Assembly: GCA_016788585.1 (NCBI GenBank)
Contig: JAEURP010000002.1
Location: 96,245-160,244 of the forward strand
DNA from: Chthonomonas sp.
Lineage (GTDB): Bacteria; Armatimonadota; Fimbriimonadia; Fimbriimonadales; Fimbriimonadaceae
DNA: 64,000 bases
Direction: 5' to 3'
A program made the translations under genes and the position numbers. A model generated the notes under the pieces. That model was not told where the DNA came from. It made no database searches and saw only the letters and a list, made by a program, of their open reading frames with translations. The stretch's first letter is position 1. Each line of letters starts with the position of its first letter. This document shows, in pieces, positions 17,781 to 19,046 of the stretch.

Positions 17781-19046
17781 ATGTCCAGCAGCTTCGGCAC
17801 TCTGTTCCGCGTGACGACCTTTGGCGAGAGCCATGGGGCGGGGGTCGGCGTGGTGGTGGATGGCTGCCCGCCGGGGCTGGAGATCTCTTTGGAGGAGATT
17901 CAGACCGAGCTCGACCGGCGCCGGCCCGGGCAAAGCGGCATCGTCTCGCAGCGCAAAGAGAGCGACCGCGTCGAGATTCTGAGCGGGATTTCGCCCGAAG
18001 GACTGACCCTCGGCACGCCGATCGCGATGCTGGTGCGCAACGAAGACGCCCGGCCCGTGGACTATGAGGAAATGCGGCACAAATTCCGCCCCAGCCACGC
18101 CGACTTTACGACGCATGTGAAATACGGCGTGCGGGACTGGCGCGGCGGCGGGCGGTCCTCGGCGCGCGAGACGGTCGGGCGCGTTGCCGCCGGGGTGATT
18201 GCCCAGAAGTTGTTGAAGGAGATTTGGGGGGTGGAGGTTGTGGCTTATGTGCAGTCAGTGCAGGACATTGCGATGCCTGAATCTCCCCTCCCAAGATTGG
18301 GAGGGGCTGGGGGAGGGTTGAACACGCCAGCCGATCGGCGCGCCAACGACTCCCCCCTAACCCCCCTCACAAGTGAGGGGGGGATTGACCGCGCCGCAGT
18401 CGAGGCAACCGCTGTGCGCTGCCCCGACCCCGAGGTCGCCGCGCGGATGATCGCGCGGATCGAAGAAGTAAGAAAGCAAGGCGACACGGTCGGCGGCGTC
18501 GTGGCCTGCCAAGTTAGAGGCGTGCCGACGGGATGGGGCGAACCGGTGTTTGACAAGTTGGAAGCGGATATGGCGAGGGCGGTTATGAGCCTGCCGGCGA
18601 GCAAAGGCTTCGAGATTGGGAGCGGGTTCGCTGGGACGTTGCTGAAGGGAAGCGAGCATAACGACGCGATGCGTAATTCTCCCCTCCCAAGATTGGGAGG
18701 GGCCAGGGGCGGGTTGAACACGGAAGCCGATCCGCACGCCATCAACCCTCCCCCAACCCCTCCCAATCTTGGGAGGGGAGTAAAGACGACCACCAACAAC
18801 TCCGGCGGTATCCAGGGAGGCATCAGTAACGGTATGCCGATCACCTTGCGCGTGGCCTTCAAACCTGTGAGCACAATCATGATGGAGCAGGACACCGTGG
18901 ACGAGAATTACGAGAACACGACGATCAAAGGGAAGGGGCGGCATGACCCTTGCGTCCTACCGCGGGCCGTGCCGATGGTCGAGGCCATGGTATCTTTGGT
19001 TCTGGCCGACCACGCCTTGCGGCAGCGCGCCTTAATGGGCTCTTAA
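17781..19046 (+). CDS. aroC: Chorismate synthase carrying two in-frame repeat inserts
   Basis: Chorismate synthase makes chorismate from EPSP with reduced FMN, the last shared step of aromatic biosynthesis. Family motifs are clear: TTFGESHG, the Arg/Gly-rich RPSHAD segment, GGGRSSARETVGRVAAG, FEIGSGFAGT, NNSGGIQGGISNG and KGRHDPCVLPRAVPM. The product has 421 residues against about 355 for the family. Two 34-residue stretches, 168-201 and 300-333, are encoded by 102-bp palindromic elements; without them the length is 353. Both lie in segments where family members vary in length. It starts 27 bases after the protease stop, and pstB follows after 3 bases. Confidence 0.95.
   Translation: MSSSFGTLFRVTTFGESHGAGVGVVVDGCPPGLEISLEEIQTELDRRRPGQSGIVSQRKESDRVEILSGISPEGLTLGTPIAMLVRNEDARPVDYEEMRHKFRPSHADFTTHVKYGVRDWRGGGRSSARETVGRVAAGVIAQKLLKEIWGVEVVAYVQSVQDIAMPESPLPRLGGAGGGLNTPADRRANDSPLTPLTSEGGIDRAAVEATAVRCPDPEVAARMIARIEEVRKQGDTVGGVVACQVRGVPTGWGEPVFDKLEADMARAVMSLPASKGFEIGSGFAGTLLKGSEHNDAMRNSPLPRLGGARGGLNTEADPHAINPPPTPPNLGRGVKTTTNNSGGIQGGISNGMPITLRVAFKPVSTIMMEQDTVDENYENTTIKGKGRHDPCVLPRAVPMVEAMVSLVLADHALRQRALMGS
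18283..18384 (+). repeat. 102-bp coding palindromic element, copy 2 (first in aroC)
   Basis: It starts with the same CTCCCCTCCCAAGATTGGGAGGGG hairpin core as copy 3 (given here by its ends, 18283-18306) but has a diverged right half, a different hairpin built on CCCCCCTCAC and GTGAGGGGGG at 18361-18382. Length is again exactly 102 bases and the reading phase is the same, giving SPLPRLGGAGGGLNT at its start. Confidence 0.88.
18679..18780 (+). repeat. 102-bp coding palindromic element, copy 3 (second in aroC)
   Basis: Both ends are hairpins and inverted copies of each other, with a central non-palindromic part. It is 102 bases long, in the same reading phase as copies 1 and 2, and encodes SPLPRLGGARGGLNT through PPTPPNLGRG. 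It differs from copy 1 at about seven positions. Confidence 0.9.

What the first reader, a model, noticed from the sequence alone, without database searches (positions are those of the whole stretch)
18283..18780. Chorismate synthase carries two in-frame palindromic repeat inserts
Two 102-bp elements (18283-18384 and 18679-18780) interrupt aroC, each adding exactly 34 codons in the same phase. The 421-residue product becomes 353 residues without them, matching the usual length. All recognisable AroC motifs remain outside the inserts. In-gene palindromic elements are known from Rickettsia (RPE), but I know of no such family described for Armatimonadota-like genomes; novelty is not checked.
Basis: partly seen in the sequence, partly recalled or inferred. 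Interest (0 to 1): 0.93.

Follow-up and report, generated by a model that had tools for sequence, protein, structure and literature searches.

The report
Mobile palindromes inserted in-frame in aroC
The only chorismate synthase gene found in this bacterium's assembly carries two in-frame 102-base palindromic DNA elements that a same-genus relative lacks, and these elements are likely spread by a small homing-type DNA-cutting enzyme (DUF559) whose gene sits between two copies of the same palindrome in this genome and between similar palindromes in many other bacteria.

Summary
aroC (17781-19046) has two 102-bp palindromic inserts, same phase, no stop. It is the genome's only detected AroC and is under purifying selection. 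Same-genus G001 lacks both inserts; G004 lacks insert 1 and has a different palindromic pair at site 2. Net gains are +31 and +29 codons, not +34 each. The inserts are REPIN-like: two inverted hairpin-plus-G-rich-tail units. The genome has 22 such hairpins, and its single DUF559 gene (homing-endonuclease-like nuclease) lies between two of them. Elsewhere 55 of 94 DUF559 genes had inverted repeats across their flanks, 39 with hairpin plus G/C-run. Shifted controls gave 0 of 141, AroC loci 0 of 27. RAYT transposase genes had 13 of 32, but 1 of 32 of this design. Caulobacter DUF559 genes up to 93% identical shared no flanks, and some DUF559 domains elsewhere lie in frame inside conserved genes. 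Best reading: non-autonomous elements likely mobilised by a DUF559 homing-type nuclease; mobilisation itself is inferred. In-gene REPs are already published; the DUF559 link was not found in the library searched.

The parts
17781..19046 (+). aroC, chorismate synthase, 421 codons with two in-frame inserts; the only PF01264 match in the genome
18283..18384 (+). insert 1 (102 bp): type A unit on the left, type B unit on the right, facing each other; absent in G001 and G004
18679..18780 (+). insert 2 (102 bp): two inverted type A units; absent in G001; G004 has a different palindromic pair at the same site
18283..18321 (+). type A unit (hairpin then G-rich tail), left end of insert 1
   Evidence: I1
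18350..18384 (-). type B unit, right end of insert 1 (left border approximate, by eye)
   Evidence: this end has its own matches elsewhere in the genome (L006, L016, L020)
18679..18717 (+). type A unit, left end of insert 2
   Evidence: I2
18742..18780 (-). type A unit, right end of insert 2, 97% complementary to the left unit of insert 1
   Evidence: I1, I2
7587..8966 (+). flavin amine-oxidase family gene (PF01593, E 6.7e-54), 459 codons, holding the third in-frame copy
8512..8613 (+). third 102-bp copy, in frame, same phase; absent in same-genus G001 and G004

Best explanation
The two aroC inserts are short palindromic elements read in frame, likely gained in this lineage, and they are most likely non-autonomous members of a mobile family spread by a DUF559 endonuclease. 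Shown: each insert is two inverted units, a hairpin followed by a G-rich tail facing inward. The same units are dispersed through the genome and bracket its single DUF559 gene. DUF559 genes in other bacteria are often bracketed by units of the same design. DUF559 is related by sequence profile and predicted fold to the homing endonuclease I-Bth0305I and, more weakly and by fold only, to Vsr. Inferred: the nuclease would recognise the hairpin/G-tail ends or cut target DNA, and break repair would then copy in either the full element (ends plus nuclease gene) or the short one (two ends only). Landing inside a gene would be tolerated only where the frame stays open and the site is a flexible loop; the element helps, because at least one frame in each direction is stop-free in all three window copies. 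The extra residues are predicted to be carried as disordered loops without loss of enzyme function.
For: Insertion: AroC of same-genus G001 lacks both inserts and G004 lacks insert 1; the third site is empty in both. Single AroC; window-branch dN/dS about 0.08 over 301 codons. Own DUF559 C18:266372-266683 lies between inverted units 266286-266324 and 266776-266814, 95% complementary over 42 nt. Flank inverted repeats: DUF559 35 of 68 and 19 of 29; shifted windows 0 of 141; AroC loci 0 of 27. Hairpin plus G/C-run: DUF559 39 of 94, RAYT 1 of 32, p 1.6e-5. Bracketing unit dispersed: 28-70 hits in each of 12 Caulobacter genomes. Mobility: none of 67 Caulobacter DUF559 pairs (61-93% identical) shares a flank. 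In-frame DUF559 inside YbeY, a RecQ-like helicase, a methyltransferase. Homing link: profile hit to 3r3p E 6e-5, Foldseek E 1.8e-4, a DUF559 gene assigned to the EDxHD homing family in PMC9403480 (passage).
Against: No transposition or cleavage is shown. No empty site was found for the own DUF559 element: its flanks have no homolog in the genus beyond short repeats. 39 of 94 DUF559 loci show no flanking inverted repeat. Genomes with 5 or more CCCTCCC hairpins have a DUF559 in 11 of 13 cases against 38 of 68 others, p = 0.066; G012 and G067 have 10 and 25 hairpins and no DUF559 detected. In G004 the aroC insert is type B, while its DUF559 is bracketed by another hairpin. Of the five loci with DUF559 inside a host-gene frame, only L066 passed the flank test. 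RAYT loci are also bracketed by inverted repeats (13 of 32). No target-site duplication of 2 bp or more is visible at the three window sites.
Confidence: 0.62

Rival explanations
1. The inserts are ordinary REPINs mobilised by a RAYT (Y1 tyrosine transposase); the DUF559 gene is a bystander.
For: The unit pair has REPIN architecture; the genome has two PF01797 genes; RAYT genes in relatives are also bracketed by inverted repeats, 13 of 32.
Against: Neither own RAYT locus (L028, L029) contains a type A or B hairpin by pattern. RAYT-bracketing repeats are of other design: 1 of 32 with hairpin plus G/C-run against 39 of 94 for DUF559.
Confidence: 0.14
2. DUF559 genes are cargo: palindromic elements moved by an unidentified host or mobile enzyme pick up or trap nuclease genes, which themselves contribute nothing to movement.
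For: Some hairpin-rich genomes have no DUF559 detected (G012, G067); type B in G004 does not match the repeat around its DUF559.
Against: The association recurs in Armatimonadota relatives, Caulobacter and other named genomes with one small gene between the ends; homology to a homing endonuclease and a DUF559 domain in an intein-like setting (L080) fit a role in mobility.
Confidence: 0.2
3. The in-gene copies are maintained because they do something for the host protein or mRNA (tethering, regulation by a hairpin), and their insertion mechanism is incidental.
For: Both sites are open and in frame; strong hairpins form in the strand as DNA; G004 also carries a pair at site 2.
Against: Inserts predicted disordered; none of 24 relatives aligned has these inserts; the site 2 hairpins differ between window and G004.
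Confidence: 0.03
4. Assembly artefact of a draft genome joining repeats.
For: The window genome is a 27-contig assembly.
Against: Three copies each have their own flanks and preserve frame; a palindromic pair at aroC site 2 is found in a separate assembly (G004), whose 389-aa AroC is identical to P0001, held as 3 member sequences on 13 contigs from several sources.
Confidence: 0.01

Closest known systems
REPIN / RAYT (TnpA-REP) system
   Same: Two short palindromic units in inverted orientation forming a ~100-nt element without its own gene; dispersed copies; one helper-type gene bracketed by the same units.
   Different: The bracketed gene is DUF559 (homing-endonuclease/Vsr-like), not a Y1 tyrosine transposase; no type A/B hairpin at the own RAYT loci; no GTAG in the unit.
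GTAG/CGTC-tagged REPs located inside genes (Di Nocera et al. 2013, PMC3733652; section 15 read, passages)
   Same: REP dimers or groups encoding 20-30 amino acids inside genes, sometimes two per gene (O. terrae uvrA).
   Different: Different unit sequence; [quoted passage not shown] the paper is not among the 14 in the library that hold 'DUF559'.
Rickettsia palindromic elements (RPE)
   Same: Palindromic element read in frame inside protein genes (RPE-1, -4, -6 are named so in PMC3733652).
   Different: Other lineage; sequence relation not tested; helper unknown (recalled).
EDxHD homing endonuclease I-Bth0305I (PDB 3r3p)
   Same: DUF559 shares sequence profile and predicted fold.
   Different: 3r3p is named 'mobile intron protein'; here the own-genome gene is free-standing between palindromes. 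The I-Bth0305I paper itself was not held.
Caulobacter VsrA CCNA_02930 (PMC12907096; passages read)
   Same: A DUF559 protein of PD-(D/E)XK/Vsr type reported as responsible for an SOS response in cells lacking a cytosine methyltransferase.
   Different: The main text has no occurrence of 'palindrom'; of mobility I saw only passages on methyltransferase origin.

Membership tests
REPIN/RAYT | Two inverted REP units separated by a short spacer | tested here: met
   39-nt arms 24 nt apart, 90% complementary
REPIN/RAYT | Associated RAYT (PF01797) bracketed by the same REP | tested here: not met
   No type A/B hairpin in L028 or L029 by pattern
REPIN/RAYT | GTAG (or CGTC) tetranucleotide at the unit end | tested here: not met
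   Unit sequence CTCCCCTCCCAAGATTGGGAGGGGCTGGGGGAGGGTTGA has neither
MITE | Terminal inverted repeats and no gene of its own | tested here: met
   the 102 bp are read only as part of the host gene
MITE | Target-site duplication | tested here: inconclusive
   No adjacent repeat of 2 bp or more at the three window sites; the empty sites of relatives do not align base for base, so an eroded duplication is possible
MITE | Ends shared with an autonomous element | tested here: inconclusive
   Same units bracket the DUF559 gene; that this element is autonomous is inferred
Rickettsia palindromic element | In-frame insertion in conserved protein genes | tested here: met
   aroC twice, amine oxidase once
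Rickettsia palindromic element | Sequence relation to RPE families | not tested
   No RPE sequence was compared
Homing endonuclease (EDxHD/Vsr-like) | Catalytic fold and residues | tested here: met
   Foldseek 3r3p E 1.8e-4; invariant D53, E64, D66 and near-invariant H70 in 19 sequences; their catalytic role is recalled, not tested
Homing endonuclease (EDxHD/Vsr-like) | Site-specific cleavage that drives copying of its own gene | not testable with these tools
   Needs cleavage and homing assays
Intein | Splicing domains around the insert | tested here: not met
   Inserts are 34 residues each; the NCBIfam scan of AroC gave chorismate synthase models only

The most novel reading that the evidence does not exclude
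DUF559 nucleases define a bacterial class of mobile element of their own: a free-standing homing-type nuclease gene between hairpin/G-tail ends, with 100-bp end-to-end derivatives, that spreads through intergenic DNA and in frame through essential genes across several phyla, in parallel to but independent of RAYT/REPIN.
Probability: 0.45. Interest if true: 0.88.

Novelty: new variant of a known kind. Interest (0 to 1): 0.72.

Why it matters
Some bacterial genomes carry palindromic repeats whose source of movement is unknown (for CGTC REPs so stated in PMC3733652), and Pfam still names DUF559 a protein of unknown function. If the link is right, one helps to explain the other. It would also show a nuclease-driven route by which conserved proteins acquire short disordered inserts, and a second REPIN-like system that is testable in laboratory strains.

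Tried and rejected
Rejected: RAYT as the partner; intein or intron reading of the inserts (where the only Rfam match in the window is a tRNA); chance palindromes. Tried without result: empty site of the own DUF559 element (no homologous flanks in the genus beyond short repeats); genome-wide co-occurrence of hairpins and DUF559 (p = 0.066); Pfam for a possible further in-gene copy at C2:71414 (no family), so that copy is not counted. My first ORF motif filter was too strict and was replaced by an HMM. In one search my start-motif filter dropped L032, L034, L036, L038 and L039; L032 and L034 were aligned, the other three were not. In one search I took fixed gene borders; one search repeated the test with HMM borders. 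The 36 database homologs aligned were used for the structure; a loose peptide pattern over the 120 listed ones found palindrome-like residues in P0001 only, which is the G004 protein. Paper searches bearing on novelty; only open-licence PMC papers are in that library.

Full report
OBSERVATION. aroC runs 17781-19046 (+), 421 codons, and matches two chorismate synthase equivalog models above cut-off. Two 102-bp elements lie at 18283-18384 and 18679-18780. Each is made of two inverted units: a hairpin, then a G-rich tail pointing to the element's centre. In insert 2 the 39-nt arms are 24 nt apart and 90% complementary. The hairpin pattern has ten matches in the window (five places, both strands) against 0.01 expected. 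As single-stranded DNA the two elements fold with z = -5.6 and -9.3. All three copies start at codon phase 1, in a frame with no stop in any of them; some other frames carry one or two stops.

INSERTION. In the same genus, G001 has an AroC without either insert (its contig begins inside the gene; equivalent to 361 aa, the length of the near-identical P0002). G004 lacks insert 1 but has, at the place of insert 2, a palindromic pair of a different hairpin type B, in frame, 389 aa. Net gains in the window are +31 and +29 codons relative to G001. So '34 codons each' is the element length, not the net change; a few native codons differ at each site. The right end of window insert 1 is also type B, so ends of different type combine. 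Both G001 and G004 lack the third copy; the window is 75 bp longer there than G001. Of the 29 relatives' AroC loci delivered, 24 were aligned and 2; 3 were not aligned. None of the 24 has these inserts; one (L033) has unrelated extra residues at site 2. aroC is the only PF01264 match in the genome. Changes unique to the window branch are 27 synonymous and 7 non-synonymous in 301 codons (dN/dS about 0.08; G004 0.09, G001 0.12; unrooted); when the inserts arrived on that branch is not known. The AlphaFold2 model (37 sequences, pLDDT 79.9) scores under 50 at 169-183, 185-197, 304-316 and 325-330, all within the inserts, i.e. predicted disordered loops.

THE FAMILY IN THIS GENOME. The genome (27 contigs, 2.38 Mb) has 27 BLAST hits to insert 1 and 22 exact hairpins against 1 for a control pattern. 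Its single DUF559 gene (C18:266372-266683, minus strand) lies between inverted type A units at 266286-266324 and 266776-266814, with another unit at 266196-266234. The two RAYT genes have no type A or B hairpin within their loci.

THE FAMILY ELSEWHERE. I tested 70 of the 106 DUF559 matches that one search counted in 81 genomes (own included; 30 delivered as loci, 40 more fetched, chosen among the stronger E-values) and all 29 named loci. Inverted repeats (18 nt or more, E up to 1e-3) between the 400-bp flanks: 35 of 68 (2 dropped for short flanks) and 19 of 29. Controls: 0 of 65, 0 of 56 and 0 of 20 for windows shifted inside the same loci, 0 of 27 for AroC loci, and 13 of 32 for RAYT loci, which are the 30 delivered plus the two own ones. 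With gene borders from an HMM, 55 of 94 DUF559 loci (5 of 99 dropped for short flanks) have such repeats and 39 of 94 have both a hairpin and a run of four G or C in the arm, with the tail inward in 33 of these 39; RAYT 1 of 32 (Fisher p 1.6e-5). So RAYT genes are also bracketed, as published, but by repeats of another design. A 67-nt bracketing unit from a Caulobacter vibrioides locus has 28-70 hits in each of 12 Caulobacter genomes (in 9 of 12 only 40 candidates were scored; all 12 were chosen because they hold a DUF559 locus). Among 196 pairs of DUF559 domains at 55% identity or more, 6 share a homologous flank beyond 250 bp; of these pairs 67 are between Caulobacter loci, 61-93% identical, and none of them shares one. 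That points to mobility, though I had no positive control for shared flanks between these species, and many of the other pairs come from distant hosts where none is expected.

DUF559 IN FRAME INSIDE GENES. In five of the 99 DUF559 loci the domain sits in a long frame with host-gene sequence: YbeY (L066), a RecQ-like helicase between DEAD and Helicase_C domains (L099, Flavisolibacter MAG), an N6/Eco57I-type methyltransferase (L071; L065 has the same N-terminal part and is cut by the contig end), and MurD-like Mur ligase (L064, cut by the contig end). Only L066 of these passed the flank test (38 nt, 89%); at L099 and L064 hairpins near the domain are seen by eye. In L080 the domain lies in an intein-like frame beside a DNA methylase part; both Pfam matches are weak and below cut-off. 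In L099, and at the outer borders of L066, the tails point outward, the reverse of the aroC arrangement (by eye).

WHAT DUF559 IS. The model of the own protein has pLDDT 87. The best PDB matches are 3hrl (endonuclease-like NGO0050, E 4e-6) and 3r3p, the homing endonuclease I-Bth0305I catalytic domain (Foldseek E 1.8e-4); Vsr 1vsr follows further down (E 0.037). A sequence profile also finds 3hrl (1.1e-36) and 3r3p (6e-5). PMC9403480 (passage) assigns a DUF559 gene to the EDxHD homing family. PMC12907096 (passages) reports a Caulobacter DUF559 protein as Vsr-like and linked to an SOS response.

MECHANISM. Shown: mobile-looking palindromic elements, in-frame insertion, bracketing of DUF559 by the same units. 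Inferred: that DUF559 cuts DNA at the unit or target and that repair copies full or short elements. Against: 39 of 94 loci lack bracketing; G012 and G067 have hairpins without a detected DUF559; type B in G004 does not match the repeat at its DUF559; co-occurrence by genome is not significant (p = 0.066); no target-site duplication of 2 bp or more is visible.

KNOWN OR NEW. In-gene REPs, including two per gene, are published (PMC3733652, section 15 read). The RAYT helper is published for GTAG REPs (same paper, passages). For DUF559 plus palindromic plus repeat the library gave 2 papers, neither on this topic by title and start of abstract; none of the 14 DUF559 papers listed is on such repeats by title. 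PMC12306157, on REPs in bacteria and archaea, has no occurrence of nuclease, RAYT or transposase in its main text. So the insert alone is a new member of a known kind; the DUF559 partner makes it a new variant.

Noticed in passing
window 7411-7590: Another G-rich palindromic repeat family just upstream of the amine-oxidase gene, with 16 further, partly short, matches listed in the genome, several of them next to type A units. Not found in the own RAYT and DUF559 loci L028, L029, L012, L014, L030; folds at -81.8 kcal/mol as RNA, no control run.
   Followed up: partly
G000:C18:149486-150523 (L014): Two inverted type A units bracket about 1 kb without a DUF559 gene; could be a composite or decayed element.
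   Followed up: no
L080: DUF559 domain in an intein-like frame beside a DNA methylase part, where a homing nuclease would be expected (weak Pfam matches).
   Followed up: partly
L066: The YbeY frame also contains further translated repeats (CHSERSEES) near its N-terminus.
   Followed up: no
window 17567-17737: C-terminal tandem repeats of about 33 codons with DVD..GE.DAADID motifs in a large ORF (15030-17753), dockerin-like by eye and recall; a similar pair ends the ORF at 13352-14026.
   Followed up: no
The DUF559 model also matches proteins of the Toxoplasma mitochondrial ribosome (9i05, 9g6k) by fold, E 0.003 and weaker.
   Followed up: no
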